Shown here one piece after another: positions 234 to 58,263 of a stretch of 64,000 bases of DNA (position 1 is the first letter of the stretch; each line of letters starts with the position of its first letter). Location of the stretch: positions 5,704,001-5,768,000 of the forward strand of contig OX359194.1 in assembly GCA_947172415.1 (NCBI GenBank). Direction: 5' to 3'. This DNA comes from Chondrosia reniformis (taxonomy: Eukaryota > Porifera > Demospongiae > Chondrillida > Chondrillidae). Both the position numbers and the translations under genes were made by a program. The notes beneath the pieces were generated by a model, which was not told where the DNA came from, ran no database searches, and saw only the letters and a list, made by a program, of their open reading frames with translations.

Positions 234-2604
234 CTTCCATTTTCAGTTCCTCTGATTTCTAGCATACCAATATTGTCAGAGGGCAGTGAGAAGAGTGGCT
301 CGGGGAGTAGATGCATTTCCATAAAGGGATCTTCACTTGAACCTAAAAGGCACACAAACATACATATACGTACATACGGATTGTATCATACGTATATATA
401 AGGATTGCATCATACGTATAAGGATTGCATCATACTGTACGTCATTGCATAATACAGTAAATACTATTCTGCACATTTCCCAGTGAGGGAACAGTCCTGT
501 TTGGATAATGGCCAGTAACTGTCTTCCACAAGCCCAAAGATGTATTAAATAGCTGTTAATATTTTAAGAGCCCATTCTTAAAATATTTTACCCCCCCCCC
601 CTTATAAAGAAGTCAATAACAGCTTTTTAGTATACATTAAACGGGTACTTGCTGGGACAAAGATAGCTATTCAACTAATCCATAAATTCGAGCTAGCAGA
701 GAGATCGACGTACTTGTGAAACTGACTCCCAAAATGACAATATCTACTGTAGTACAGAGGACTAGCAGATGCACAACGTGGTCTTGAAATATTCCAGGCT
801 TAGGTCGGACGAGTCCAACCGAAAGTATGACTTCATTTAATCCATCAAAGAATGCCAAATCTCCACTACATATCATAAGAGACAGATACTGTATGTACAC
901 ATTTACACACAACCTAATAATCACTGTCAACCCACCCATCTCACTCTCAACCCACCCATCTCACTCTCAACCCACCCATCTCACTGTCAACCCACCCATC
1001 TCACTCTCAACCCACCCATCTCACTGTCAACCCACCCATCTCACTCTCAACCCACCCATCTCACTCTCAACCCACCCATCTCACTCTCAACCCACCCATC
1101 TCACTCTTAACCCACCCATCTCACTGTCAACCCACCCATCTCACTCTCAACCCACCCATCTCACTGTCAACCAACCCATCTCACTGTCAACCCACCCATC
1201 TCACTCTCAACCCGCCCATCTCACTCTCAACCCACCCATCTCACTCTCAACCCACCCATCTCACTCTCAACCCACCCATCTCACTCTCAACCCACCCATC
1301 TCACTCTCAACCCACCCATCTCACTGTCAACCCACCCATCTCACTGTCAACCAACCCATCTCACCGTCAACCAACCCATCTCACTGTCAGCCAACCCATC
1401 TCACTGTCAACCCACCCATCCTCATAGTTCCATATGTACAGATTGCTATCAATGGTCAACCAAGCTCGATTTATTTCTGGGAACACTCCCATGGCACAGT
1501 TACATTGCATCTCTGGTAGTCATCAGTTAAGTCATCATACAAATCTGTTACAGTGAATCATACAGACTAAATGGCATTAAACCAAACAATTGTAAAAAAA
1601 AACAACTAAAATTAGGCACAAACAGACAAAATGAAATGCTTCATATAAGAATAGGCTTTTAGAAACAATGTGATCATACACTAAAGTACAACCAACTGGT
1701 TTCATTTGATGGAGGATACGGTCAAAGTGCTCTACAAGTTCAGGTGGTAGAGGCGTGTGTTTGAAGCTCCCGACATACGGCAGGCCTGAAAGTGCTGGCA
1801 GCTGCATTGAAAGTGTTGGGTAATCCACATCCCTAACACCACTCACGGTTGTATGGGCTGCAGAGAAAGAAATTAGGTATATATGACACTCAGAAAATCA
1901 ACTACACTTTGAGAGAGCAAATGAAAATATACAGCTGCGTTGTCCTTTTAATAGCAAACTGTGCATATACGTACATATGGGTCCAATAATACATAATGTG
2001 CTTCATCTTAACGTGTGCATACGTTTTCTCCTGGGTTTAACTATTAACAAAGTTTGGGGACCATATATTTATGCAACTCTTATATGATGATTGGTTGATT
2101 ACCTAACCTACTTTCCAAGAATTATCTATAGTAGTTGTTACAATGATAGAAAAGCAATAACAGCGAAAATCTTTACATTAAAGAAACGCCTATTCGGGCA
2201 CCTGTGTAATTTGGGAAACTACACTGACATAGCTTGCTAGTTAATGCTCCATCAGTAAAAGGTTAACATTCAATATCTAAACTAACACAATTCAAGAACA
2301 TAATGATTGATAGAGATTAAATAGGTTAGGTAGTCTATATAATCCATGAAAAGAGTAATTACAACTTCTACAGCAGGATAACATTTAGCAACTAATATAT
2401 TCAGCATATGTACGTAGCGGGTAGGTAGCATGTACGTAGCGGTAGCATGTGAGAGACGAAGGTAATCTTACTATGATTTTGCTGTAGACCAAGCAATCGT
2501 CCAAGCTCCAACTGACTAGTATCCGAATGCAACTGAGTATCGACCTGCGTGCACGCATTTTCAAGTGCTTCTGATTCTCTGGAATTACGATGCGAGGCCG
2601 CCAT
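234..2604 (-). CDS. NUP155: Nucleoporin NUP155, N-terminal part (partial)
   Basis: Scaffold nucleoporin of the inner ring of the nuclear pore. Five coding exons on the minus strand: 2604-2472, 1857-1720, 1512-1416, 865-714 and 342-234. All have GT-AG borders and phases that join to one frame of about 209 codons. Recognisable NUP155 blocks, in order: an N-terminal helix with [50 protein letters not shown], then [27 protein letters not shown]-like [12 protein letters not shown], and [19 protein letters not shown]. These belong to the start of the N-terminal beta-propeller. Vertebrate NUP155 is about 1,390 residues, so most of the gene lies left of the window. The start was set at the ATG in AAAATGGCGGC; a second in-frame ATG lies three codons upstream at 2613. 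Intron 3 is mostly a minisatellite that overlaps the end of exon 3. RNF11 starts 711 bp away on the other strand, so the spacer may be a divergent promoter. Confidence 0.93.
921..1420. repeat. 20-bp minisatellite, 25 copies, overlapping a NUP155 splice donor
   Basis: Unit tcactctcaacccacccatc, 25 head-to-tail copies filling exactly 500 bp. Variants are a C/G change in the seventh base and a few ccaaccc or cccgccc copies. On the minus strand each unit reads GATGGGTGGGTTGA, which is the end of NUP155 exon 3 plus the start of its intron. The last five bases of the array (1416-1420) are themselves coding. The plus-strand 230-codon open frame across the array is a by-product of the repeat. Confidence 0.97.
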
Positions 2605-10512: not shown

Positions 10513-13500
10513 TTAATTGTCTAGCAATCCTTCACTTTGATCCCTTTCTTCTGAAGCTCCTTGACTGAAAGGTGTTTCATCTTCATCAGAATTATCAGAT
10601 TCACTTTGTGCTCTAATTACTAAAGTCTGGATGTGCTTGAAGGGAAACTCTTCTATTTTATCATCTATTTTGACCAATTGTTTCTGTAGTGCCTTTAGAG
10701 CTATTGCTCGGTTGTGTCTTTCTCTTTGTAATTCTTTGAATTTTATCCACCTCTCTTTGATGCAATTTGGTATAGGAAAATACATGTATCCATGATATAC
10801 AGTGATGATCCCAAGTTGTATGATAGCAACTGATATTGAAAGAATGCTTGCTGCTTTAGATAGAGCGGGCATTGAGTTCAGGCTTACAAAGACACTTATC
10901 ACTGTAAGATTCAAGAGGTAGAGAGTCTCATTGTTTTCAATCTTTGTAAACCATATCACTATATTTCTACATGTCTTTCTGAACCCTTTAGCACTGGCTG
11001 CATGAGGCCAGTGGCCAATAATTAACATTTTTCGAAAAGGCTTTACTGCATGTATTTCTACAAAAAAGTAACTCAAAATTACAATGAAAACAAGCAAAGC
11101 AAATGCTTGCAACGGTAGCGCAATCTGTAACATGAGGAAAGCCACTCTGATGAGTAGCCTGAATCCCAACCAGAAGCCAAGTGGCCAGCGGTAGGCTCCA
11201 TGGAAGACATCAAGGAAGTGGCTGAACCATAAACTTCTGATGCACATTCTTCTGAATAGGTCTCCGAGGAGAATGACAATGGTGATTGGAATGAGGTAGA
11301 GAAGAGAGGCTACCAGTGCTGTCAGTCCCAAGGCCAGGTGCTTTCCCTCAAAATAGTAGAGTGTTGGTTGATAGAGCCAGCGAGGTGACGGGTATGGGGA
11401 ATCATGTGTATAGACATTTGTATATCTCAGAGCAGTTATGATAGCTCCAGTGAGACTAGTGTAAGTTAACAATATCAATGTAGCCAACACAGGTACAGCT
11501 CTTTTAGCCACAAATTCAACCTTGAATATCTTGAAGTTAAACTTGTGTGCTCCAATAATGATGATAATCACAAGTGAGAAGAGGTAAATTGGAAAGACAA
11601 ATTGAAGCATGACCTTTGCAAACTCATCCATTCCATCATAGAAACAATTTCCACTTGCACTTCCAAAATTGAGCATGGAAATGATGCTATAAAATGGCTC
11701 TCCAGCATGTTCCTGCAAAAAGTCATCGTAAAGATACATGATGTTTGCATAGAAACTGATTCCATTGATGATTCCTTGTACGATTGTCAAATTGAATAGG
11801 AAGAGAAGAGCAATCAGTGAGAGTCCAGCAATAGCATAGAAGAGAGTGATCAGGTACCAAGGTCCATGACACTTTGTGCACTCAAATCCCCCAAAAACAG
11901 AACTGTATCCATGTGGACACTCACTACAGAGGAAACCTTGACGGAGGTTTGTACAAAAGTATTGATTTGATGAGTTTAATGCCTTTAAAGTGGTTCCAAT
12001 TTCCATTAAGTTATCGTTGCAGAAAAATGGAGGACAGAAATCTGAGAATATGAGTTGTTTATGTTGTAATCCTAACCAATAAGATTGTCTGCTTTGCTTA
12101 AAGGCTGCTATTTCTGTAATGTTGGCAATAGAACAGGAAAATCCCTTCAATTTTAATACATTGTTACAGATACATTGAGAGCCTTGCATTTGTTCAATTG
12201 TTAAAAGCTGTAATCCAAGTGGACACTCAGGAAGGGTTACAATACTGACTTTGTGTTCAAGATCACTTACACCGGTAAAAGTAGGTAAATTATAGCTTAT
12301 TGTTACTTTCTTGGAAGCAAAAACAGACTTGAAAAATACTCTTTTACATTCTTTGCCTAAAAATACACTTTGTGTGTCCTGCTCTACTGACTCAGTAATT
12401 TGAACTGTTCTATTGATGATAACCTTTTTGAAGTCACCCATTAATGCAGCCCTAATAGAAACCCTTTGTCCAGGAAAGATGGTGTAGTTAGTATAATGAC
12501 TACAGTCCCAAAGATTTTTCTTGTTCGGGTCGATTTCATTGCAGATGCATATAAAGTAGGGAGGTGAGGCTATGTCGTGTTCTTGCCACTCATCAGCATA
12601 TCCTGTTACTTCTGTATGAATGAACCTCCTGTGGTCTGTTATATTCATTGTGATAAGTCCACCAGTAGTTTCCATTGTGCAATTATCTAAATGTCCATTA
12701 TATATTTTATATGCTTCAAAAGGTAGATAAAAACCTAATGTGAAAATGGATGCTTCGTTTTCAGCAATATCTTTCTCACTCACAAGTTTACCATTTTCAC
12801 TGACCAATTGATAGAAGCAAAGTCCATCACATCCAATATGGTTGATGATACAATTTGAATACTTGTTATACAAAACATTACTGACGCCTTTGAAACCATT
12901 TGGAATAACAAATATATTTCCACCTTGTCTTGTATAATACTGAGACATTCGCAAACTTGATGAATTATCTAGTAAAAGCCTTGAATTGTAATTCATTTCA
13001 ATGCCAATATATTTCTCCTTTACCCAAGAATACAAATTTGGGTTGCTTTCTTTATTTCCTATGTAGTTGATATTGTGAAAATGGAGTATGCTATTGCTCA
13101 ATGAAAGTGTTATTCCTGTAGAACTCTTAATATTAACAGAATCAAATAAAACATAATATTCTTGAAAATTTTCAATAAGAAAACCATTAATATTATGGTC
13201 TAACTTCAAGATACACTGCCTGAATACCAGAATAGGGTATTTTATATATTCTGTTCTATTTATTGGTACTTGTTCTTTAGCAGAGATGTACTTAAGTTTA
13301 ATGTTGAAAATTTCTGTCAAATCGTAGCTATATCTATTGACCACTGTAGTGTTTTGCAGAAATATAGCTCTTTTTGGCACTTTGTATGTATCATCCAATG
13401 GGTTATATGGTGTCTTTGGTGTAGTATAGTAGCTATAAGTTATTGAGATGGGTGAATTAATGATACTGCTGTCAATTGATATCAAACTAAAACTGCTTCT

Positions 13501-14358
13501 CTGGTATACCAGACAATTTATAATAATTTCAACAGGCCATACATATGATTGAAAATGAGGACGATGGGATACAGTTGTTATGAAGTTTGTTTTGTTTAGT
13601 ATCAGTTGAAAATTTCCAATTAGTCCAACTAACTTTACATGTAATAAGTTTTCCTCTCCAATGAAAGCGCAATTTTCCAAGATTACATGAGTAGTATAGT
13701 TCTTTGGCGAAAAATTAAAATGTCTTACGTGGAAGCCCTTTATGCTAGAAATTTCAGAGTCAGTTATTAATAGCTGAGATTTGACTGGGATGTTAGATAT
13801 AAACTGTATAATAACTAGAAACAGACCAGATATTTTGGAATTACGTATAACATTGTTTCCTGCTAAATCAAACATTTGAAAGTCTGTTTCAAAGACAGTT
13901 TGCCATATAACATCCACCATATTCATGCTTTCTGTGTTCTCAATAGTAAGAATAGCGCTTTCTGCTAATATAGAGATGACTAAACTTTGAAAGGTCACTT
14001 TTCTACAGTTTTCAATCAGCAGTGGTCGTCTGCCTTTCACAAAGTACAATGAAGTCTCCTTAACAGTATCACCTCTCCAAGTTACATTTTGAGAATTGAT
14101 TATTGCGATAGTTATATTACTTGTTTCAATGAAATGCCTACCTTTCAGAAAGATCCATGTAGCATTAGATGTTGAGAAGATACTGGTATTCTGTTGGTAG
14201 TACTCATCAACTGTGTGACATGGTGTACTGTCCTGACAGCTCTCCTGCTGACAATTTGGAGTTACCCAGAAGGTATGTGTCTGGTGTTCCCCAATGGTAG
14301 AGTATGTAGTTGCCAACGTTAACACTACTACTATTGTCAGTGCTCTTAGCTGACGCAT
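10513..14358 (-). CDS. Orphan multi-pass membrane protein with beta-helix-like ectodomain, copy 1
   Basis: A single uninterrupted 1,281-codon frame. Residues 1 to about 23 form a signal peptide (LTIVVVLTLATTYSTIG). The ectodomain (about 24-830) starts HTFWVTPNCQQESCQDSTPC and has many N-x-S/T sites. Recurrent short strands (NVTWRGD, VTFQSLVISI, ILHFHNINYI) look like a right-handed parallel beta-helix. A Cys-rich neck follows (CSECPHGYSSVFGGFECTKC, just before the membrane). From about 836 to 1190 there are seven or eight hydrophobic spans (WYLITLFYAIAGLSLIALLF; FPIYLFSLVIIIIIGAHKF; HLALGLTALVASLLYLIPI). The roughly 90-residue tail is acidic (SDNSDEDETPFSQ) and ends EGLLDN. I do not recognise a named family. 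The layout suggests a surface receptor or adhesion protein; ligand and signalling route are unknown. The lack of introns contrasts with its neighbours. Copy 2 lies 21.9 kb away in the same orientation. Confidence 0.9.
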   Translation of the reverse strand: MRQLRALTIVVVLTLATTYSTIGEHQTHTFWVTPNCQQESCQDSTPCHTVDEYYQQNTSIFSTSNATWIFLKGRHFIETSNITIAIINSQNVTWRGDTVKETSLYFVKGRRPLLIENCRKVTFQSLVISILAESAILTIENTESMNMVDVIWQTVFETDFQMFDLAGNNVIRNSKISGLFLVIIQFISNIPVKSQLLITDSEISSIKGFHVRHFNFSPKNYTTHVILENCAFIGEENLLHVKLVGLIGNFQLILNKTNFITTVSHRPHFQSYVWPVEIIINCLVYQRSSFSLISIDSSIINSPISITYSYYTTPKTPYNPLDDTYKVPKRAIFLQNTTVVNRYSYDLTEIFNIKLKYISAKEQVPINRTEYIKYPILVFRQCILKLDHNINGFLIENFQEYYVLFDSVNIKSSTGITLSLSNSILHFHNINYIGNKESNPNLYSWVKEKYIGIEMNYNSRLLLDNSSSLRMSQYYTRQGGNIFVIPNGFKGVSNVLYNKYSNCIINHIGCDGLCFYQLVSENGKLVSEKDIAENEASIFTLGFYLPFEAYKIYNGHLDNCTMETTGGLITMNITDHRRFIHTEVTGYADEWQEHDIASPPYFICICNEIDPNKKNLWDCSHYTNYTIFPGQRVSIRAALMGDFKKVIINRTVQITESVEQDTQSVFLGKECKRVFFKSVFASKKVTISYNLPTFTGVSDLEHKVSIVTLPECPLGLQLLTIEQMQGSQCICNNVLKLKGFSCSIANITEIAAFKQSRQSYWLGLQHKQLIFSDFCPPFFCNDNLMEIGTTLKALNSSNQYFCTNLRQGFLCSECPHGYSSVFGGFECTKCHGPWYLITLFYAIAGLSLIALLFLFNLTIVQGIINGISFYANIMYLYDDFLQEHAGEPFYSIISMLNFGSASGNCFYDGMDEFAKVMLQFVFPIYLFSLVIIIIIGAHKFNFKIFKVEFVAKRAVPVLATLILLTYTSLTGAIITALRYTNVYTHDSPYPSPRWLYQPTLYYFEGKHLALGLTALVASLLYLIPITIVILLGDLFRRMCIRSLWFSHFLDVFHGAYRWPLGFWLGFRLLIRVAFLMLQIALPLQAFALLVFIVILSYFFVEIHAVKPFRKMLIIGHWPHAASAKGFRKTCRNIVIWFTKIENNETLYLLNLTVISVFVSLNSMPALSKAASILSISVAIIQLGIITVYHGYMYFPIPNCIKERWIKFKELQRERHNRAIALKALQKQLVKIDDKIEEFPFKHIQTLVIRAQSESDNSDEDETPFSQGASEERDQSEGLLDN

Positions 14359-14743
14359 TTCTAATTTTAACTGTTAATGTATATATACAATTGTAGCTAG
14401 TGTATTTATATATACCTATGTATGTGTGGGTATATATTACATAACTTATTGTACTGAAATTTTATATTCTATATAATAACATTTACTATGATACGTATTA
14501 TACTACAATTTTTATGCTGAAGGCAGAAGCATACACAACTATATATAATGTTTCCCCACACTACACTAAAATTGAAAATTCGTGTTTTGTAAACTTTTCA
14601 AAAGGCAGTTTCTATTTCTTTTAACATTTCTATTCATTTTGAATTAAAACAATAGTACTAATGTGTCCCCCTGAAAATAAAAGCAATGTGCCACTTTTAA
14701 TCTGACTCATTTTAACATACGTACAGTACATACATATAACAAG
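14359..14743. other. AT-rich upstream region of receptor copy 1
   Basis: No gene and no TATA box at a clear distance. It does not resemble the sequence upstream of copy 2, so the duplication's 5' homology ends at or near the start codon. Confidence 0.6.
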
Positions 14744-16329: not shown

Positions 16330-19270
16330 TTGGTGGAGAGAAGTTTCCTTATTGAGGAAACTCAAATATAGGAATACCTTGATCAGCTAATCTACAGCTT
16401 TCATTAAAAGTAAGTTTAGTGATCCTAAAATCTGACATTTGACAGATTCGCTTCCAGAACTTGATACACACAATCTCGGTAATAAGTGAAATCGGTTTCC
16501 ATCCCATTTCCCCTAACAGAGCCTTGATCCAAGGGTGCGGTGCATTCCTATTTAGTCCAAGAAAATTTCTTATTAACTTGTATTAATTTCGGGATAGGAT
16601 TTGAAGCCCCATAGAAATTAACTATAATTAATCAATGGAAGAATCAAACATTCATATAATCTTGAGTAAATCTTGTGGTTAAATCCTCCACAGGATCTAT
16701 ATTTACAAATCAAAAGGCTAGCTGCCCTACTGGCCGTGGTGGATATGGCTTCAATAGCAGTTTTCCAATTTAAATGTTGGGTAAATACTTAACTAGCCCA
16801 AGGTATTTATAGCTGGAATTTCGAAGTTACAACAACTGAATCTAGCAGAGTCCAACATCTTCCTGTTATTGCATTATTTTAGTTTTTATGGGGTTAATTG
16901 TGAGGGACCAAGTGTCACAGAATTGGGTAAGCCTATGTAATTTGTCCTGTAGGGCTTTTGGACAATCAGCTAAAATAAACAGATCATCAGCATATAGAAG
17001 ACAGTCTAGTTTCAATTTGCCAAAGTCACAGGATCAAATTACAGGTTTCATATGGTGTGAAATCTATTTTGAACAGCCAGGGTTCAGAGGGTGCTCAAGA
17101 ATGTGCTAACAGACTAATTTCACTGGGTTCAAATTTTAGCAGCCCCCTTTCCAAGTTTTATACATACTTTTATACCTATTGAAACCTGGCAGTTCATAGA
17201 GTTCAACCTGATATTTGATCCTGTGAGTTAAGAGGTCTGGCAGTGGGTGAGGTTATTAGGTATTCAACTAGGTCGTTAATATTAAATTTTAAATAGTGTG
17301 GGTGACAGAATACATCCTTGCTTTATCCCAGAATTAACTGAAAACCAAACAGTTGGTGCTATCATTATTGAAGCGTACTGAGTATTGTGTTATTAAGTAC
17401 AATCTACGTGTGGTCTCCAAGAAATCTCCATTACTTCCAATCCTTTCTAGTTTTTGCCATATTTGTCTCTTGGAATTGAGTCAAAGGCTTTCTTAAAATC
17501 TATAAAGTAGGCATATGTGTCCTTTTTATGATTTTCAAGGATGTTAAAAAGAGTAAAAATCTGGTCTTGTTTTTTCCTGAATCCACATTGTTCTTCACAT
17601 AAGATATTATTAGAATCAAGGTATATGTTGTTAGGCGATTATTACAAAAGCCTTTCACAATACAGGATTGCATTGCTATTCCCCTATGATTTTTAGGATC
17701 GTATTTATTACCATTACCCTTATATAGATAGGGGTAAGGGAGCTGAGGTACCAGTCAGAGGGAATCTCAGCGTTTTTAAAACAGCGGTTATATAATTGAT
17801 GTAAATATCTAATGACAATAGCGATTTTTATAGTACTTGCACCTAATCCATCTGGGCCAGGAGATTTCTTATCATCTAATAAGTAAATAGCCTCCGAGAC
17901 TTCTTCTAGGCTAATTTCCATATTGAGATATGGTTCTGGCTGAGAAGTAAGGTTGTTTGTTAATGGATTGTTTACTTCTGACATAAGATATATGACGAGG
18001 TTGGGGATTTAGCAGGTTCTTTGTCTGATAGTAGGCAAGCGATCCTGAGGTCCCTGCAGTGGGATGGCACTTCCTTTTCATCCAGCGAACACCTAGCTGT
18101 GTGCTTGGCTGCAGCTGGTGTGTCGGATGAGTCAGTGGCTATGCGGTTAAGGGCGTTTTATAAAGTAAGGTGCGATATAGGAGAATGAGGATATAATACT
18201 TAAATTGATTTAATACAAGCTCCCTCCGGTACCATATACATGGTGACAAGAATATAGATAGGTAGGCATGCAGTAATTTTAATATATGCATATCATTTAT
18301 GATGACTCTTTAAAGTAATTTATTGATGAATTGATGCATGAGACTACTACATGCAATAGGGTAATTCAAGATAAGAGGTTAGACTGTTATACATTTAGAA
18401 TTTAGGTAGGTGTACACGTAGATGATCCTCTGGGTATTAGTTTATTTTATTTGTATTGTACTCTTATCTGTATACACAATGACCTGTATCCTCAGCAGAC
18501 CCATTTAGGACGATTTAGGCTTGAGAACATTGGAGTGTTGATAGTACCTTACTATATGGTGTCAATTTTCCGATAAATGTGTCAGATATATATATTCCAG
18601 TCATCAATAGAGACCCAAGTCCATATGCATGCAATTGCAAGAAATCAAGGAAGAGATATAGTAATATTGATTGAAACTCTTTAGATGTACATGTAGCTTC
18701 GATTCTGATCTGTGTTATGGTATTTTAACTGACCCTTGTATTTTATATTTTATAGTGACTCATGGGCCCAGTCTGGCCTAGTGCATACATCATATTTTGA
18801 TTTGCACGTGTCACTCTAATAAATGTTATTATTATTATTATAAAATAGTTTAGCCATATATCCTTAATTTCATTGTGATCGTTAGTTAGATTTCAGTTTG
18901 AATTTAAAAGAGATTTACGTAGGTGTGGTATGTCCTTTATGGTCATTTAATTGTATCGAATAACTTCCAAAATTTATGGGACCTTCCATGGTTCAGGTGC
19001 TTTAGTAAATTGGTGTACATGTGTTTAAGATTATTGCATGAATTTACGTTTTTCTTGTCTAACTAGCTTATCAAAAGTTTTCTGTTTATCTTTGCAAATG
19101 TTCCAGAGATATATTCTATCAGGGTTAGTATTATTGCATCTCATCCAATTCTTTTGTGCTTTCCTAAGATCTTGTCTACATTTGGATAACTTTTGATTCC
19201 ACCATGGTTTTGGTGATGCTCCATGCATGTTTGAGTTTGAACATGGTCTATATGCCTTGTCTATATGCAC
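16330..19270 (-). mobile_element. Decayed non-LTR retrotransposon (LINE), 5' truncated
   Basis: Read on the minus strand, pieces of one LINE ORF2 appear in order. The post-endonuclease linker is at 19270-19031 (KPWWNQKLSKCRQDLRKAQK), followed by FWKLFD near 18960. RT N-terminal motifs are at 17984-17676 (KKSPGPDGLG, IPSDWYLSSLTPIY). Then come GFRKKQDQIFTLFNIL and YAYFIDFKKAFDSIPRDK near 17600-17460. The catalytic LLYADDLFILAD is near 17000-16970. The C-terminal part follows near 16600-16440 (FLGLNRNAPHPWIKALLGEM). The frame is broken by several stops and shifts, and an unrelated insert separates linker and RT. No endonuclease domain is visible. The layout suggests a CR1/Jockey-like clade, not resolved further. 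Confidence 0.88.
17998..18845 (+). mobile_element. Unclassified insert splitting the LINE
   Basis: About 850 bp lies between the LINE linker and RT parts. Its plus strand ends with aataaatgttattattatta, like the 3' end of a retroposed element with a TTA-type tail. At its other end, 18015-18187 is open on the plus strand (DLAGSLSDSRQAILRSLQWD, then EHLAVCLAAAGVSDESVAMR). I do not recognise that protein. Exact ends were not fixed. Confidence 0.45.
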
Positions 19271-32399: not shown

Positions 32400-35300
32400 T
32401 TAATTGTCTAGCAATCCTTCACTTTTATCCCTTTCTTCTGAAGCTCCCTGACTGAAAGGTGTTTCATCTTCATCAGAGTTATCAGATTCACTTTGTGCTC
32501 TAATTACTAAAGTCTGGATGTGCTTGAAGGGAAACTCTTCTATTTTATCATCTATTTTGACTGATTGTTTCTGTAGTGCCTTTAGAGCTATTTCTTGGTC
32601 ATGTTTTACTCTTTGTAATTCTTTGAATTTTATCCACCTCTCTTTGATGCAATTTGGTATAGGAAAATACATGTATCCATGATATACAGTGATGATCCCA
32701 AGTTGTATGATAGCAACTGATATTGAAAGAATGCTTGCTGCTTTAGATAGAGCGGGCATTGAGTTCAGGCTTACAAAGACACTTATCACTGTAAGATTCA
32801 AGAGGTAGAGAGTCTCATTGTTTTCAATCTTTGTAAACCATATCACTATATTTCTACATGTCTTTCTGAATCCTTTAGCACTGGCTGCATGAGGCCAGTG
32901 GCCAATAATCAACATTTTTCGAAAAGGCTTTACTGCATGTATTTCTACAAAAAAGTAACTCAAAATTACAATGAAAACAAGCAAAGCAAATGCTTGCATT
33001 GGTAGCGCAATCTGTAACATGAGGAAAGCCACTCTAATGAGTAGCCTGAATCCCAACCAGAAGCCGAGTGGCCAGCGGTAGGCTCCATGGAAGACATCAA
33101 GGAAGTGGCTGAACCATAAGCTTCTGATGCACATTCTTCTGAATAGGTCTCCGAGGAGAATGACAATGGTGATGGGAATGAGGTAGAGAAGAGACGCTAC
33201 CAGTGCTGTCAGTCCCAAGGACAGGTGCTTTCCCTCAAAATAGTGGAGTGTTGGTTGATAGAGCCAGCGAGGTGACGGGTATGGGGAATCATGTGTATAG
33301 ACATTTGTATATCTCAGAGCAGTTATGATAGCTCCAGTGAGACTAGTGTAAGTTAACAATATCAATGTAGCCAACACAGGTACAGCTCTTTTAGCCACAA
33401 ATTCTAACTTGAATATCTTGAAGTTAAACTTGTGTGCTCCAATGATGATGATAATCACAAGTGAGAAGAGATAAATTGGAAAGACAAATTGAAGCATGAC
33501 CTTTGCAAACTCATCCATTCCATCATAGAAACAATTTCCACTTGCACTTCCAAAATTGAGCATGGAAATGATGCTATAAAATGGCTCCCCAGCATGTTCC
33601 TGCAAAAAGTCATCGTAAAGATACATGATGTTTGTATAGAGACTGATTCCATTGATGATTCCTTGTACGATTGTCAAATTGAATAGGAAGAGAAGAGCAA
33701 TGAGTGACAGTCCGGCAATAGCATAGAAGAGAGTGATCAGGTACCAAGGTCCATGACACTTTGTGCACTCAAATCCTCTAAAAACAGAACTGTATCCATG
33801 TGGACACTCACTACAGAGGAAACCTTGACGGAGGTTTGTACAAAAGTGTTGATTTGATGAGTTTAATGCCTTTAAAGTGGTTCCAATTTCCATTAAGTTC
33901 TCGTTGCAGAAAAATGGAGGACAGAAATCTGAGAATATGAGTTGTTTATGTTGTAATCCTAACCAATAAGATTGTCTGCTTTGCTTAAAGGCCGCTATTT
34001 CTGTAATGTTGCCAACAGAACAGGAAAATCCCTTCAATTTTAATACATTGTTACAGATACATTGAGAGCCTTGCATTTGTTCAATTGTTACAAGCTCTAA
34101 TCCAAGTGGACACTCAGGAAGGGTTACAATACTGACTTTGTGTTCAAGATCATTTACACTGGTAAAAGTAGGAAAATTATAGCTTATTGTAACTTTCTTG
34201 GAAGCAAAAACAGACTTGAAAAATACTCTTTTACATTCTTTGCCTAAAAATACACTTTGTGTGTCCTGCTCTACTGACTCAGTAATTTGAACTGTTTCAT
34301 TGATGATAACCTTTTTGAAGTCACCCATTAATGCAGCCCTAATAGAAACCCTTTGTCCAGGAAAGATGGTATAGTTAGTATAATGACTACAGTCCCAAAG
34401 AGGTTTCTTGTTCGGGTCGATTTCATTGCAGATGCATATAAAGTAGGGAGGTGAGGCTATGTCGTGTTCTTGCCACTCATCAGCATATCCTGTTACTTCG
34501 AATTCTGTATGAATGAACCTCCTGTGGTCTGTTATATTCATTGTGATAAGTCCATTGGTAGTTTCCATTGTGCAATTATCTAAATGTCCATTATATATTT
34601 GATATGCTTCAAAAGGTAGATATAACCCTGTTGTGAAAATGGATGCTCCGTTTTCAGCAATATCTTTCTCACTCACAAGTTTACCATTTTCACTAATGAT
34701 TTGATAGAAGCAAAGTCCATCACATCCAATATGGTTCATGATACAATTTGAATACTCGTTATACCAAACATTACTGGCGCCTTTGAAACCATTTGGAATA
34801 ATAAAAACATTTCCCCCTTCATTTGTAAACTCCTTAGACATTTGCAAACTTGATGAATCATCTAGTAAAAGCCTTGAATTGTAATTCATTTCAATGCCAA
34901 TGTATTTGGTTTTAAATCCATTTAACTTGCTATCACTGGTACGGCTAATTATGTCGTTAATATTGTGAAAATGGAGTATGCTATTGCTCAATGAAAGTGT
35001 TATTCCTGTAGAACTCTTGATTACAACAGAATCAAATAATGCATAATATTCTCGGAAGTTTTCAAGAAGAATAGCATTAATATAATGGTCTAATTTCAAG
35101 GTACACTTCCTGAATACCAGAATAGGGTATTTAATTGATTCAGTTCTGTTTATTGGTACTTCATCTTTAGCATAAATATACTGAAGTCTTATATAGAAAA
35201 TATCTGTCCAATCATAACCATTTCTATTGACTACTGTAGTGTTTTGCAGTAATATAGCACTTTTTGGCACTTTGTATGTATCATCCAAAGGGTTGTAAGG

Positions 35301-36251
35301 TGTCTTTGATGTGAAAAAGTACCTGTAAGTTATTGAGATGGGTGAATTAATGATACTGCTGTCAATTGATATCAAACTAAAACTACTTCTCTGGTATACC
35401 AGACAATTTATAATAAATTCGACAGGCCATACATATGATGATCGAAAATGAGGACGATGGTATGCAGTGGTAAAGAAGCCTGTATTGTTAAATATCAATT
35501 TAAAATCTCCCACTTGTCCAATTAAGTTTACATGTAGCAAACCTTCGTTTCCAATGAAATCACATTTTTCAAAGATTACATGAGTAGTATAGTTTTTTGG
35601 TGATATACTAGTATGTCTTATGTGGAAGCCTTTTATGCTAGAAAATTCGGAGCCAGTTATTAATAGCTGAGATTTGACTGGGATGTTAGATATAAACTGT
35701 ATAATAACAAGAAACAGACCAGATATTTTGGAATTATTTATAAAACTGCTTCCTGTCAAATCACGAATTTTGAAGTCAGTTTGAAAGACAGTTTGCCATA
35801 TAATACCCACCATATTCATACTGTCTGTGTTCACCACATTAAGTACAGCATTTTCTGCTAATATAGAGATGCCCAAACTTTGAAGGGTTACGTCTCTACA
35901 GTTTTCAATCAGCAGAGGTCGTCTGCTTTTCACAAAGTACAATGAAGTCTCCTTAATAGTATCACCTCTCCAAGTTACATTTTGAGAATTGATTATTGCA
36001 ATAGTTATATTACTTGTTTCAATGAAATGCCTACCTTTCAGAAAGATCCATGTAGCATTAGATGTTGAGAAGATACTGGTATTCTGTTGGTAGTACTCAT
36101 CAACTGTGTAACATGGTGTACTGTCCTGACAGCTCTCCTGCTGACAATTTGGAGTTACCCAGAAGGTATGTGTCTGGTGTTCCCCAATGCTGAAACATTT
36201 AAAAGTTACTGTCAACAATAACACCTCCAGTGTTATTCTTAGCTGACACAT
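32400..36251 (-). CDS. Orphan multi-pass membrane protein with beta-helix-like ectodomain, copy 2
   Basis: Intronless 1,283-codon paralogue of the gene at 10513-14358, with the same plan: signal peptide (EVLLLTVTFKCFSIG), glycosylation-rich beta-helix-like ectodomain, Cys-rich neck (CSECPHGYSSVFRGFECTKC), seven or eight membrane spans and an acidic tail ending EGLLDN. The membrane half differs from copy 1 at only a few residues by eye. Changes concentrate in the signal peptide and around residues 100-520, for example NDIISRTSDSKLNGFKTKY against YIGNKESNPNLYSWVKEKY in copy 1, and an added FE before VTGYADE. The 3' flank (32161-32399) is shared with copy 1; the 5' flank is not. The intact frame in both copies argues that both are functional. 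Confidence 0.9.
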   Translation of the reverse strand: MCQLRITLEVLLLTVTFKCFSIGEHQTHTFWVTPNCQQESCQDSTPCYTVDEYYQQNTSIFSTSNATWIFLKGRHFIETSNITIAIINSQNVTWRGDTIKETSLYFVKSRRPLLIENCRDVTLQSLGISILAENAVLNVVNTDSMNMVGIIWQTVFQTDFKIRDLTGSSFINNSKISGLFLVIIQFISNIPVKSQLLITGSEFSSIKGFHIRHTSISPKNYTTHVIFEKCDFIGNEGLLHVNLIGQVGDFKLIFNNTGFFTTAYHRPHFRSSYVWPVEFIINCLVYQRSSFSLISIDSSIINSPISITYRYFFTSKTPYNPLDDTYKVPKSAILLQNTTVVNRNGYDWTDIFYIRLQYIYAKDEVPINRTESIKYPILVFRKCTLKLDHYINAILLENFREYYALFDSVVIKSSTGITLSLSNSILHFHNINDIISRTSDSKLNGFKTKYIGIEMNYNSRLLLDDSSSLQMSKEFTNEGGNVFIIPNGFKGASNVWYNEYSNCIMNHIGCDGLCFYQIISENGKLVSEKDIAENGASIFTTGLYLPFEAYQIYNGHLDNCTMETTNGLITMNITDHRRFIHTEFEVTGYADEWQEHDIASPPYFICICNEIDPNKKPLWDCSHYTNYTIFPGQRVSIRAALMGDFKKVIINETVQITESVEQDTQSVFLGKECKRVFFKSVFASKKVTISYNFPTFTSVNDLEHKVSIVTLPECPLGLELVTIEQMQGSQCICNNVLKLKGFSCSVGNITEIAAFKQSRQSYWLGLQHKQLIFSDFCPPFFCNENLMEIGTTLKALNSSNQHFCTNLRQGFLCSECPHGYSSVFRGFECTKCHGPWYLITLFYAIAGLSLIALLFLFNLTIVQGIINGISLYTNIMYLYDDFLQEHAGEPFYSIISMLNFGSASGNCFYDGMDEFAKVMLQFVFPIYLFSLVIIIIIGAHKFNFKIFKLEFVAKRAVPVLATLILLTYTSLTGAIITALRYTNVYTHDSPYPSPRWLYQPTLHYFEGKHLSLGLTALVASLLYLIPITIVILLGDLFRRMCIRSLWFSHFLDVFHGAYRWPLGFWLGFRLLIRVAFLMLQIALPMQAFALLVFIVILSYFFVEIHAVKPFRKMLIIGHWPHAASAKGFRKTCRNIVIWFTKIENNETLYLLNLTVISVFVSLNSMPALSKAASILSISVAIIQLGIITVYHGYMYFPIPNCIKERWIKFKELQRVKHDQEIALKALQKQSVKIDDKIEEFPFKHIQTLVIRAQSESDNSDEDETPFSQGASEERDKSEGLLDN

Positions 36252-36263
36252 TTCTCCCTCTTA

Positions 36264-43900: not shown

Positions 43901-46900
43901 TGTATACGTATATATAACTATTTGGAAGACCTCCTGGACAGGAGCAACACTTATTGAATCAATTATCTGGATGTTTCGACACCGAGGTCTGTATTAGTAG
44001 AATATTAATAATTAAGGTCATCAACACAAAATCACTTCATAAGCATGTACAGTACATACGTATGTACAATCATAGTTCATTTCCTAACTCACTATCTCCT
44101 CCTCCAGGTCCATCTACTCCGTCTTGCTTCAAGGCTCTAATTAGATCATTTACAATTATTTCCTTAAATAACTCTGGTCCTGGGTACCAAAACAATGAAA
44201 TAAAACTAATTATAACTGCAGTGTCCGTATATACGTACGTACGTAACATACAGCACTTTAACATAAGTGGATATATTTGTGAATCATTATAAATCCAACA
44301 TATATTCCCTAATTGTGTATACCCAATTAAAGTGTACAAATACGTACATATATCTTATATATGTCCATACCAAATTACAATACTCACTTGGTTTTTCCGA
44401 TCCAGTTCCTTTCTTTAGTGAAAATTGAGTTATGAGGAAGTCACCTGGAAGGGAATTCAGTCTCCCACATACTCTGGAGTGTACCTATCCAGCGTGAAAA
44501 TCATACAAATATAGTCAAATATGTGGATGGAAGGAGGACTTAACTGACAGTCAATAAGGAAAAATAAAGGTAATAGAAACAGAAAAAATAATGAAACAGA
44601 AATTCAATTAACACAACAAATCTTACAAATACTAAACCATTAATTATAAATAATAACAGTATGAAGTCTGGAGGATGAGAATGTAACTATTAAGTGTATA
44701 GGGCCTAATACACAGTTAAGACATTCACTGCATTGTACACACCTCTTGCAGTTGCCGGTGCTTATAGTCGATACTGGATGTGTACTTAATGGTAAACAGG
44801 TACATTTGCTGCAAATGTTCCTCCTCCAGATATTGAAATTTCTGTGTTTAAATGGATACATAATTGTGATAACTGTACTGTTACATGCATGTACATTTGT
44901 ACATACGTACGTATATGTATGTATGTACGTATTTTTGTAATAATTTAGCTAAAGGGTGAATGCCTGGTTTGTGTCAACAGAACTACTTTATCTTATGAGA
45001 ACACATTAAATAAAGACAAATGTACACATACATATGAGTATGTATTAAACATACGTACACATAACACATAAATATGAGTTATCTAAAACAATTTTCCTAC
45101 ATACGACATCTAGTCTACAGTAAAAGGCCTTGAGGGAACTAAACCTATGTAAGTATGCATATGTAGTACCTGAAGAGCTTCCTTGAATTTCCCTTGCAGG
45201 TCCATGACAATCTTACAGTGTTGACTCACCACATCTTTGTGTTCACTACCTACAGCAATAACAAGCAGCAGAGGTCAGTCAATGTCTGCTAAGTGAACAT
45301 TATCCCCTATCACTGAAAGCCACAAACTATTTCAAATGAAGTGTCAGTAGACAATTCTATCAGGTTACCCTACACAAAGTCTGGAGAGCCCAATTGGCCA
45401 ATCAAATTTGAGTGTATATTTTCCCTAATTGAGGTCTACCTATATGTATGCATACATGTATACATGTATACTGTACATATATATCATATGTATACAATAC
45501 TTATGTATGTACAGTAGGGGCCTATTTCTATCCACTTAGAAATATTGAATTACCACTTCAAGTACATAAGTGATCCATACAGCTAGCTACTACTTACAAG
45601 CATCTTTAAGCTTTCCCTCTACTTTTTTCATCTTATCTTCCAACTTTATGTACATACAGAAAGAAGGTATTTAAACACATGCTTGACATTCCATCTTGAG
45701 TACCTTCATCATCACTGAACTGAAAAGGTCATGTCATAAAGGGAATTTCTATTTCATGGAAATACCAATTTAATTACTAGTTGTACTTAAATGTATACTT
45801 GGATGTAGAAAGGCATTCAATTTCTGTATCCTAGCTAAGTAGTGTTGCTGATGCTCAAAGGAAAATCAATTTACACACGTACATACATACTGTACATATA
45901 CATATACACATACAAGTTGCATCTAGAATGGGAAATGAAAACATGCTGATGAGTGCTTTAAAGCCTAAAGCAATAATGTGTAATTTTGATAGTATTATGG
46001 AAAATATAATCCATGTTCCCAGGGTTCACATTGTGTACACATCAATACATAAACTAATAATGTACTTTTTCATTACACAACTATTACTAAATATTTTATA
46101 TTAAAAGGTATTCTCTTAAAAAGATGTAGGTACATCTCACACCTACACATACGTATACGTAGTAACCTACATATACGTATACATAGTAACCTACACATAC
46201 GTATACATAGTAACCTACATACGTATACATAGTAACCTACACATACGTATACATAGTAACCTACACATACGTATACATAGTAACCTACACATACGTATAC
46301 ATAGTAACCTACACATACGTATACATAGTAACCTACACATACGTATACGTAGTAACCTACATATACATATACATAGTAACCTACACATACGTATACGTAG
46401 TAACCTACATATATGTACATAGTAACCAACCTTTTCCTTCAGCTTTGGAGGAGCTGTTTCAATCTCAACTTTCAATGCAGCCAATTCCTGGGCCTGGTGC
46501 TCATACACCTTTTTAGTCTAAAGATGGAGTTAGGAACATACATAGCTATGTAGGTCTATGACATGGGTTGGTATGCTGTAGGTACGTATGCTATGGAATT
46601 GTAGTTGTCTACATACAGTAGGCATATACACAGACATACTATTCTTGTAGGCTAATGAGTGTATTTGTAGCAGTTGATGGTCATAAAATATTTGTATGAT
46701 GTTTCAGTCTAGTAATATCCACATGTGATTTGATTGGACAATGAAGGCATACCACAGGTACTGTACTTGGCAACAGATGAGTAGTCACTGATGTCATTAC
46801 ATTGTATGAATAATCGAATAATCTAACACACCATTTTCTTACATGCTACATCACTATATGTACGTAACTAATTGGAACTAAAATCTAGTGTGTATGTACC

Positions 46901-52600: not shown

Positions 52601-53434
52601 AAGTGTATTAACCTTCAGTAGTACCAATAGAGGCCACAGAAAAATACAAGTTTGATTTCCGTGAGTCTTGGATTCTTTGTTGGATGACATATCTGTACAT
52701 CTCCAAAATTGATTTTTACTGCAGGATGAATATACTAAAGAGCGTCTAGAGAAAATGAAGGATCCTTTTTCGCTCTACAGATGTCATACAATCATGAATT
52801 GTACCAAGACATGTCCAAAGGTATGAATGTACCATACACTTGAAGGCCAGCTCATTTTGTGCTGTTTGTTTATAGGATTATAGTTTCTCCTAGAAAACTC
52901 TACTAAATCTTATTGCATAGCATGCCCCTACATACTCTAGGGATGTATTATTATGTATGTAAGTACGTATTTTAATTATTATTGACTAATAGTTGTATAC
53001 GTATGTATGTATGTAGCCTACAGTACACATAACTGCATGTACGTACGTATGTAGTTATTTTATTTACTATTCCAGATATTGTGTTGTTTACTTGTCCAGG
53101 TGTTGTGTTGTTTACTTGTCCGGGTGTTGTGTTGTTTACTTGTCCGGGTATTGTGTTGTTTACCTGTCCGGGTATTGTGTTGTTTACTTGTCCAGGTATT
53201 GTGTTGTTTACTTGTCCGGGTATTGTGTTGTTTACTTGTCTGGGTATTGTGTTGTTTACTTGTCCGGGTGTTGTGTTGTTTACTTGTCCGGGTGTTGTGT
53301 TGTTTACTTGTCCGGGTATTGTGTTGTTTACTTATAACAGCTGGATCTCTATTGGTTATCTTTGTTTTCTTTTCTAGGGTCTCAATCCAGGACAGGCGAT
53401 TGCTGACATTAAAAGATTGCTTGCATCAGCTTAA
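49665..53434 (+). CDS. SDHB: Succinate dehydrogenase iron-sulfur subunit, mitochondrial
   Basis: Iron-sulfur subunit of respiratory complex II; passes electrons from the SDHA flavin to ubiquinone. Six exons, all in phase: 49665-49730, 49845-49937, 50642-50844, 51704-52031, 52725-52820 and 53378-53434. The product is 280 residues, the same as human SDHB. An N-terminal Arg/Ser-rich presequence ([20 protein letters not shown]) targets mitochondria. The mature part starts near KKFSIYRW. The 2Fe-2S ligands lie in [21 protein letters not shown]-like sequence (split by the exon 3 donor); the 4Fe-4S and 3Fe-4S ligands are in [19 protein letters not shown] and [32 protein letters not shown] and [17 protein letters not shown] are family hallmarks. 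The C-terminus is slightly shorter after [23 protein letters not shown] at 53481 fits polyadenylation. Introns 2 and 5 carry minisatellites. Confidence 0.98.
50414..50528. repeat. 24-bp tandem repeat in SDHB intron 2
   Basis: Unit ccccttcagtgaccaatctg + tggg, about five near-identical copies, about 115 bp upstream of exon 3. Confidence 0.93.
53076..53335. repeat. 24-bp minisatellite in SDHB intron 5
   Basis: About 11 units of tgttgtttacttgtccgggt + attg (variants with gttg, ccagg, ctggg). All three plus-strand frames are open across it, giving repetitive ORFs that should not be called genes. It ends about 40 bp before the acceptor of the last exon. Confidence 0.95.
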
Positions 53435-54421: not shown

Positions 54422-56054
54422 ATGAAGTTCATCATCATTAGCTCTCTACTGCTACTCTCAGTAGTATCAGCCTACCCAACCACTACAAGTTCCTATTCTC
54501 CAACCACTACAAGTTCTTATCATTCAACCACAAGTAAGCAGTTATTATGTATCAACTAAGGGAGGTATATAATTGTACTATATAAGCTTAATTTGTAAAG
54601 GCTATGATGTTATGATGTTAGGCAAATAATCACTGGAATGTATTATCCCAAACCAGCCAAGTGACTGTAATATTAAGATGGGAAATAAGTATACGTACAT
54701 GATCAATAATAGAAACATACGAACGTATATATACGTATATGTCACCATTATCACACACATATATATTTATATGTGTATGCAGGTAAGCCCGATTGTACTA
54801 GTGGATGTGCAGATGTCCTATTTCTAGTGGATGGATCAGGAAGTATTCTTCCTGAAGGTTATGCTGATGAATTGGAATTTGTATCAAACCTAATTGATGC
54901 CTTCCCAAGTGAAATTCGCAGTGGTGTTATTGTCTTTAGTGATGCAATAGACCATGTTCTTCCAGTAGCTGAGCGTACAAGTACTTCACCAGATGACATA
55001 TCTGGACTAAGCTTTCCAAATGGTTTTACTTCCATTGGATCTGCTATCAATGCTGCCAGAGTTGAATTCAATAACAGTGGAAGATCTGAGTGTGTCAACC
55101 ATTTGGTAGTGCTGACTGATGGAATATCTGATGATGATGTAACTGCACCCTCAGAGGCTGCTCGTGCTGATGGAATTATAACCTATTCCATTGCTATTGG
55201 AAATAGTGTTAACCAGGATCAGTTAGATGCTATTGCTGGTGACCCTTCAAGGCAATTCAATGTGACCACTTCTGCAGCTCTCAGTGACATCGAGGATGCT
55301 ATTGAAGCTGAAATCATGACATGTGGTGAGTTAATTTTCATTTTGTTATTTGTATGTAGACAGCCAAATATGCGTATATATATAGAATCCACATATACAG
55401 GATTGGTTAAATATATATAACTGATTTAATTCTTGCTGCTTTTATTTTAAATATAGTTACTACAAAGCCTACTCCTACCTGTGATATGTCAAAGTACTGC
55501 TGCAAGCCAGTTCTGGTTGCTCCCTATACTGATCACTATGGCAACCGATTAGGATCTAACATTCAAGGATTTGGAATCTGTCAAGTCCAGGCTGCAGTCA
55601 TTATTAATTTTGGAAGTTGCAGCGTAGAAAGCAGGAGTTTCAGGTATGTTTGTACGTATGTGTACCTATTTGATCATGACTTGCGTCAATGAATGATTTT
55701 TTCATTAAATATATACATAAATATAACATTAAATTTTGGATCTGGAGTATTTGATATATGTATGACTTATGTGCAGGAGTGTTGAATATTATGAAAAGTG
55801 CTTACGTATATTATTTTATACACATACATAAATACTTTGCATAATGCAGGTGGGAAGTTGAATGGGGAGATGGCAAAGTAGACAGTGGCTATCAGAATGT
55901 GATTGGACCATTTGGACCAGTGGTACACACCTATGATTACTACAATTGTCATCATGGAGTGGCTGAAGTGACTGTCAGATATTGTCACAACTCTATGGGC
56001 TACATGGATGAGTGCTGTGACTCCTTCGTTACAACTGTGAAGCTTAATTATTAA
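54422..56054 (+). CDS. Secreted VWA / PKD-like protein, copy 1
   Basis: Four exons in phase: 54422-54533, 54783-55325, 55457-55643 and 55850-56054; 348 residues. Signal peptide (MKFIIISSLLLLSVVSA), then a Tyr/Thr/Ser linker with two near-identical TTTSSY repeats. A von Willebrand factor A domain fills exon 2: ADVLFLVDGSGSIL with the DGSGS metal-binding (MIDAS) motif, then FTSIGSAINAARVEF and HLVVLTDGISDDD supplying the Thr and Asp. Exon 3 is Cys-containing (SKYCCKPVLVAPYTD). Exon 4 is PKD-like (WEVEWGDGKVDSGYQ, HTYDYYNC, CCDSFVTTVKL). VWA domains usually bind proteins through a metal ion, so an extracellular-matrix or secreted binding role is likely. Its tail-to-tail partner is at 58264-60455. 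Confidence 0.9.
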
Positions 56055-56900
56055 AGAGAAGGAAGACAAAAAACTAATTAATTATTTGCCAAACTGATTT
56101 CTCATATGACATAATCATTTTGTAAGCCAAATTTTCAATGACTTTATTATATCATTTAAATAATATTGGTCTTTTCTAAATCATTGCATGTTTACAATTG
56201 GAGAAATTGAGAATTACCCAAAGAAGTATGTATTATCTAGTTTGAAGATCATTCAGTTAGAGGTTCTATTGCATATATATACATAAATTTCCTCTTAATT
56301 GATCATGAATCGAACACACAACTTTTAATACTTGTACGTACGTATATATACGCATATACGTACATACATGTTCCGAGCATTCTTAAACCTTGCATTGTGG
56401 TTATAATGTGTGAACATATTTATGAGCTGTTTTTAAAAGTAGTATATACAGTACGTATCTGATTCATCATTATATATAATTGTTATTATCATCATCACCA
56501 CAGCTGGAAGTATATATGTAGGGATAAGTAATGCATGCACATAGAAATGTATATATAATTTTAATTTCAGTATGCCATTGTGTAATTATCGCATGATTAC
56601 TGTCTTGTTTATTGATGTACTACTGTATGTAGTCATTCATGCAGGCACTGCTCTCCCAGGAATATGAAAAGGAAATATATAAGCCATTTTGAAAATACAA
56701 TGTCATATACGTATTTTGACTTACAGTATTAATAAGATCTATCTCAATAGGCTTGGTGAAAACTAGCTTCATGTAGGATAAGCCATAGGCATATTCATTA
56801 TATAGTTTGTTACAAATCATTATTTTGCCTTCATAATGTAAATTAGTCTTAGATCTAGAACTTTGTATTTTGACTGATGAATTCATAAATATATTATACA
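56055..56900. other. Spacer between the VWA genes, left part
   Basis: AT-rich. The first ~30 bp (to about 56085) are identical to the partner's 3' UTR; after that homology stops. Open frames at 55767-56069 and 56620-57090 on the minus strand are shadows. Confidence 0.6.
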
Positions 56901-58060: not shown

Positions 58061-58263
58061 ATAAGTACTTTACTATAGCTACTGTTAACATGTCAGTTTA
58101 TATAATTTTATAATTTTGAGCAAACTTGTGTATATGTACATATGCAATCAAAATATAACTTACAAAGAGGAACTATTATGTTTTCTATAGGAGTTTAAGA
58201 ATATATACTTTGTAAAGTCAGCTTGACCAATAATAATTAATTAGTTTTTTGTCTTCCTTCTCT

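What the first reader, a model, noticed from the sequence alone, without database searches (positions are those of the whole stretch)
921..1512. A 25-copy minisatellite multiplies a NUP155 5' splice site
Each 20-bp unit on the minus strand contains GAGATGGGTGGGTTGA. The real exon 3 end and donor read GAGGATGG followed by GTGGGTTGACAGTGAG. The array's last five bases are coding. The true donor is therefore followed by about 24 copies of nearly the same exon-end/donor string. Either splicing uses only the first, or intron-retaining mRNAs with frame-cycling inserts occur (20 is not a multiple of 3).
Basis: seen in the sequence. Interest (0 to 1): 0.7.

Follow-up and report, generated by a model that had tools for sequence, protein, structure and literature searches.

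The report
Sponge intron built from repeated donors
In a sponge's NUP155 gene, one intron is almost entirely a short DNA repeat most of whose copies carry a splice-start signal identical to the real one; a similar arrangement is known from a human gene, and it seems to recur at several other genes of this sponge.

Summary
On the minus strand, NUP155 exon 3 (1512-1416) is followed by a 550-nt intron (1415-866). A 25.0 x 20-bp array (1420-921) fills 495 nt of it and takes in the last 5 coding bases. The junction EDG|GDL aligns without a gap to a solved NUP155 chain. The donor core TGG|GTGGGT is identical in 20 of 25 units, the real donor included; four have GTTGGY, one has GC. All 72 later GTs in the array lead to a stop before exon 4 ends, so 'frame-cycling' mRNAs would be dead ends.

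The genome fits Chondrosia reniformis. There, arrays of strong donors often start at the donor of an apparent coding exon: 8 of 15 examined, against 0 of 10 control arrays. Four of the 8 have good homology support, one weak, three none. In SART3, CEP104 and INTS14, 14, 15 and 21 nt of coding exon lie inside the unit.

Best reading: such arrays are born by tandem duplication across an exon end and tolerated because the exon-proximal donor is used. The human 6-16/IFI6 minisatellite is the precedent. No RNA evidence was available.

The parts
1416..1512 (-). NUP155 exon 3 (97 nt), ending GAGGATGG
   Evidence: homology to NUP155, gapless junction EDG|GDL; reading frame
866..1415 (-). NUP155 intron 3, 550 nt, GTGGGT...TATGTAG
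921..1420 (-). 20-bp x 25.0 minisatellite; 5 nt in exon 3, 495 nt in intron 3
1410..1418 (-). real 5' splice site TGG|GTGGGT, in the first copy of the array
1341..1400 (-). units 2, 3 and 4, with the weaker GTTGGY at the donor position; unit 3 also holds ACG|GTGAGA at 1364, the best-scoring cryptic donor
866..920 (-). 55-nt non-repeat 3' part of the intron with the acceptor TATGTAG|T
714..865 (-). NUP155 exon 4 (GDLAFFDG...ILGVSFT), 3' end read as ACAA|GTACGT
46141..46427 (-). 24-bp x 12.1 array starting at about +4 of a putative intron (AAG|GTTGGT), downstream of open frames with an FCH (F-BAR) match; this exon end is inferred from frame only
53063..53333 (-). 24-bp x 11.3 array starting 2 nt before a putative donor TAA|GTAAAC; most units repeat CAA|GTAAAC; exon without homology support

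Best explanation
The array is a minisatellite that arose by tandem duplication of a short stretch spanning the exon 3/intron 3 boundary of NUP155, then expanded inside the intron. It is tolerated because the spliceosome uses the exon-proximal copy (the first donor, at 1415). The other 24 copies then leave with the intron, and any use of them gives a premature stop and probably nonsense-mediated decay. Shown: the anatomy, the identity of the copies, the stops, the homology of the exon junction, and similar layouts at other exons of this genome. Inferred: the founding duplication at NUP155, exon-proximal donor choice in vivo, decay of the alternatives, and near-neutrality.
For: Array and donor share register: five coding bases are inside unit 1, and 8 of 9 match if one gap is allowed (TGAGGATGG against TGA-GATGG, by eye). 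The junction that gives conserved NUP155 protein uses the first copy. All 72 later GTs give stops. Same layout elsewhere: SART3 (L028; 10 copies of AGGTAAGT at 20-bp spacing; 14 coding nt in the unit; junction gapless against solved SART3), CEP104 zinc finger (L034, 15 nt), INTS14 (L039, 21 nt; Pfam match to residue 75 of 76), an ABCB-type transporter (L043, 3 nt shared) and a CCDC113-like gene (L033, 2 nt shared, Pfam match below cut-off). Anchoring was judged in 8 of 15 strong-donor arrays with a visible 5' edge against 0 of 10 control arrays, one-sided Fisher p = 0.006.
Against: With only the homology-backed cases the comparison weakens: 5 of 15 against 0 of 10 is about p = 0.06, 4 of 15 about 0.11 (own arithmetic). 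Anchoring was judged by eye by the same reader who chose the loci: 6 of 9 distinct loci, 12 of about 15 in the capped list (contigs C3-C5 only), and 10 control loci picked to leave out microsatellite-like arrays. Arrays holding AGGTRAGT are not more frequent genome-wide than arrays with the motif read backwards: 60 against 68 hits, and 234 against 460. Apart from SART3, only the exon side of the pattern-found junctions has more than weak homology support. In NUP155 only five coding bases are shared, which alone cannot prove a founding duplication. No RNA evidence. A better-scoring cryptic donor exists in unit 3.
Confidence: 0.65

Rival explanations
1. An ordinary intronic minisatellite grew until it met the exon; the five shared bases are coincidence or the residue of selection on the donor.
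For: Intron 3 is nearly all array, so contact with an exon is easy. A control array in an apparent intron comes close without touching the splice sites: L048 leaves 25 nt on the donor side and 12 on the acceptor side (exons judged from open frames).
Against: The first 15 intron bases and last 5 exon bases form an exact copy of the unit (unit 1 equals units 5, 12 and others). In SART3, CEP104 and INTS14, 14-21 coding nt are in the unit.
Confidence: 0.2
2. A regulatory decoy array: many equal donors lower splicing of intron 3 or produce stop-containing isoforms that set the NUP155 level.
For: 20 identical donor cores plus 24 second GTs, and every later GT gives a stop. Most units carry two GGG runs, recalled to act as intronic splicing enhancers.
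Against: Nothing shows conservation or dosage control; neither was testable here. Similar layouts at unrelated genes (SART3, INTS14, CEP104, ABCB) fit a mutational process better. No RNA data.
Confidence: 0.08
3. Assembly artefact, or copy number wrong in the assembly.
For: Tandem arrays are often mis-sized; reads were not available.
Against: The 25 units carry single-base variants scattered in order, and similar arrays occur on several contigs.
Confidence: 0.03

Closest known systems
Human interferon-induced gene 6-16 (IFI6) minisatellite with multiple splice donor sites (Turri, Cuin and Porter 1995, NAR 23:1854)
   Same: A minisatellite that provides many splice donors in one transcript (title seen only in the reference list of PMC4526556).
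   Different: The human case has transcript data and a 12-bp unit (both recalled; the paper is not held). Here no RNA evidence, a 20-bp unit and a weaker donor.
Human internal tandem repeats at exon-intron boundaries (PMC2812944, passages read) and introns from tandem arrays (Zhuo et al. 2007, seen as a reference only; not held)
   Same: Minisatellites at exon-intron boundaries that affect intron borders.
   Different: There about half of the repeats lie in coding exons, and those at boundaries can form novel introns. Here an apparently ordinary intron whose inside is copies of its own start.
C. elegans intronic minisatellites linked to alternative splicing (PMC4039745, passages read)
   Same: Minisatellites in introns near splicing decisions.
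   Different: In the passages read those hold regulatory motifs; copies of a splice site are not mentioned there.

Membership tests
Minisatellite providing multiple splice donors (6-16/IFI6 kind) | tandem units that each contain a GT donor like the real one | tested here: met
   20 of 25 units with identical -3..+6; 4 with T at +3, 1 with GC
Minisatellite providing multiple splice donors (6-16/IFI6 kind) | array begins at the donor of an exon (feature recalled) | tested here: met
   unit 1 contains exon 3 end and donor; junction supported by homology
Minisatellite providing multiple splice donors (6-16/IFI6 kind) | transcripts that use more than one copy | not testable with these tools
   no RNA reads held
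Intron newly made from a tandem array (Zhuo 2007 kind, features recalled) | both intron borders lie in repeat copies | tested here: not met
   last 55 nt and the acceptor are outside the array
Intron newly made from a tandem array (Zhuo 2007 kind, features recalled) | intron absent from relatives | not tested
   the own genome has no relatives in the genome search

The most novel reading that the evidence does not exclude
5' splice sites are birthplaces of minisatellites in this sponge: duplications across exon ends recur genome-wide and leave arrays of a few to dozens of near-equal donors, of which the exon-proximal one is the working one. That gives a natural series for testing how the spliceosome picks one of many identical donors. 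Where the unit is a multiple of three and open (the ABCB-type gene, 24 bp), the array could add in-frame octapeptides.
Probability: 0.35. Interest if true: 0.65.

Novelty: new member of a known kind. Interest (0 to 1): 0.45.

Why it matters
Donor choice among equal neighbours is, as I recall, usually studied with engineered duplicates. Here are natural arrays with up to dozens of near-identical donors in conserved genes (NUP155, SART3, INTS14, CEP104), where protein homology points to the copy that must be used. If RNA data confirm exon-proximal use, they test exon definition directly and show how an intron can lengthen without harm.

Tried and rejected
Random sample: 19 stretches of 10 kb plus the window gave 16 hand-picked arrays of good quality. 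Arrays of low match, few copies or microsatellite type were left out, as was L001, which repeats the NUP155 array; one edge of one array (L014 9317-10000) is cut off. By eye 6 of 16 touch a putative exon boundary: NUP155, window 46141, window 53063, L015, L019 and L020. Only NUP155 and POLG (L015) have junction homology. Against a density of one boundary per 546 bp (from, computed), 5 of 15 besides NUP155 gives p from 0.0002 to 0.05 depending on the assumed density and window; 3 of 15 gives 0.02 to 0.36. With only POLG counted there is no excess. Suggestive at most.

Excess of donor motifs in arrays genome-wide: not found; the backwards control is as frequent or more so.

RNA families: no match at gathering scores in the window. 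L029, L041 and L042 exons rest on open frames only; in L029 and L042 the exon may end one unit later than I took it to. L035, L037 and L045 lie inside longer arrays, so their edge was not seen. L030, L031, L032, L036, L038, L040 and L044 were judged not anchored. In control L050 the script showed a neighbouring array; its own array was read and is not at an evident exon. Paper searches.

Full report
Check of the observation. TRF reports 921-1420, period 20, 25.0 copies, 95% matches. On the minus strand the units mostly run GATGGGTGGGTTGA(G/C)AGTGA. Unit 1 starts with the last five bases of a coding exon. The exon is NUP155 exon 3: a spliced query matches NUP155 chains at about 1e-66, and the residues at the junction, [13 protein letters not shown], align without a gap in the alignment printed. 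This fixes the donor at 1415 (GAGGATGG|GTGGGT) and the acceptor at 866 (TATGTAG|TGGAGATTTG). Intron 3 is 550 nt, 495 of them array and 55 not.

How equal are the copies. The nine bases -3..+6 are the same in 20 of 25 units. Units 2, 3, 4 and 13 have T at +3, and unit 11 has GC. With a recalled weight matrix the real donor scores 3.55, as do its 19 copies. ACG|GTGAGA in unit 3 scores 5.17, and the other 23 GTGAGA sites 1.19. U1 pairing energies (U1 5' end recalled) are -9.6 for the real donor and its copies, -8.3 for the unit-3 site and -4.6 or -5.4 for the others. So local sequence does not single out the real donor; position next to the exon does.

What the other donors would give. All 24 later unit positions and all 72 later GTs in the array lead to a stop codon before the end of exon 4, as does full retention. 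One- and two-unit insertions shift the frame into early stops, and three or more units contain TGA. Frame-cycling proteins are therefore unlikely.

Where it lies. The held genome has 117,379,552 bases in 15 contigs, 14 large and one of 17,451. That fits Chondrosia reniformis, 117.37 Mb, 14 chromosomes, mitochondrion 17.45 kb (PMC12181767, abstract and section 10 read).

Is it alone. I searched the genome for three nearby copies of AGGTAAGT or AGGTGAGT and read 6 of the 9 distinct loci of the first list and 12 of about 15 in the capped second list. Three of the 12 showed no edge. Of the 15 left, 8 begin at the donor of an open coding frame: L028, L029, L033, L034, L039, L041, L042 and L043. Homology supports SART3 (L028, junction gapless), CEP104 (L034) and INTS14 (L039) and an ABCB transporter (L043); for the last three only the exon side was tested. 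The CCDC113-like L033 is weak, below Pfam's cut-off. L029, L041 and L042 have none. Of 10 arrays picked from those with the motif read backwards, none had an edge at an evident boundary, though two (L046, L048) appear to lie in introns with edges 12 to 25 nt from an exon. 8 of 15 against 0 of 10 gives one-sided p = 0.006; with 5 or 4 of 15 it is about 0.06 or 0.11 (own arithmetic). Judgement was by eye. The motif itself is no commoner in arrays than its backwards control.

Why duplication rather than contact. In SART3 the unit is GTAAGTGATACCCCTCCTAG and the exon ends GATACCCCTCCTAG. In INTS14 the last 21 coding bases, and in CEP104 the last 15, recur in the unit. Coding sequence is unlikely to have come from an intronic repeat by mere contact. 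At NUP155 the shared coding stretch is only 5 bases, so there the inference leans on the others.

The acceptor side. In POLG (L015) a 31-bp array ends at the acceptor TATATGTAG|AATGGGCCC with at least five exon bases in the unit, and the acceptor that gives conserved POLG protein is the last copy. Again the exon-proximal copy is the one that keeps the protein.

Verdict. [quoted passage not shown] paper not held), and human repeats at exon-intron boundaries are described (PMC2812944, passages). New here are the sponge cases and their apparent recurrence. I saw no report of donor-born arrays in sponges in the listings, which cover open-licence papers only and show only the top titles of the longer lists. 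Which donor is used in vivo is untested. On rechecking, confidence in the best explanation was lowered from 0.68 to 0.65 because the control choice and the edge calls were mine and by eye.

Noticed in passing
L028 (C10:497400-498250) minus strand: SART3 intron: 10 copies of AGGTAAGT, most preceded by CCCCTCCT, a pyrimidine tract with AG directly joined to a perfect donor, like a recursive-splicing (ratchet) point; L029 has 30 copies of AGGTAAGT after similar tracts.
   Followed up: partly
L015 578-744 minus strand: POLG intron with a 31-bp x 5.4 array that repeats the acceptor; the last copy is the one that fits the protein.
   Followed up: yes
L043 (C5:804950-805330) minus strand: ABCB-type gene: 24-bp unit, open in the exon frame (VSDTSDCE) in the short part read, so inner donors could add octapeptides.
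   Followed up: partly
L019 7100-7290 plus strand: Locus with fn3 and tyrosine phosphatase matches: 37-bp x 5.2 array that contains about 26 nt of the putative exon after a transmembrane-like segment; donor CAA|GTTGAT is weak and unproven.
   Followed up: partly
window 10516-14373 and 32403-36260 minus strand: Two very similar 1286-residue open frames that look like membrane proteins, apparently recent duplicates.
   Followed up: no
window 54713-55417 (+) and 59439-60038 (-): Two similar open frames in opposite orientation that look like von Willebrand A domains (recalled likeness), with further inverted similar frames at 55770-56081 and 58237-58500.
   Followed up: no
window 17679-18008 minus strand: Open frame that looks like part of a reverse transcriptase of a non-LTR element (KKSPGPDGL; recalled motif).
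   Followed up: no
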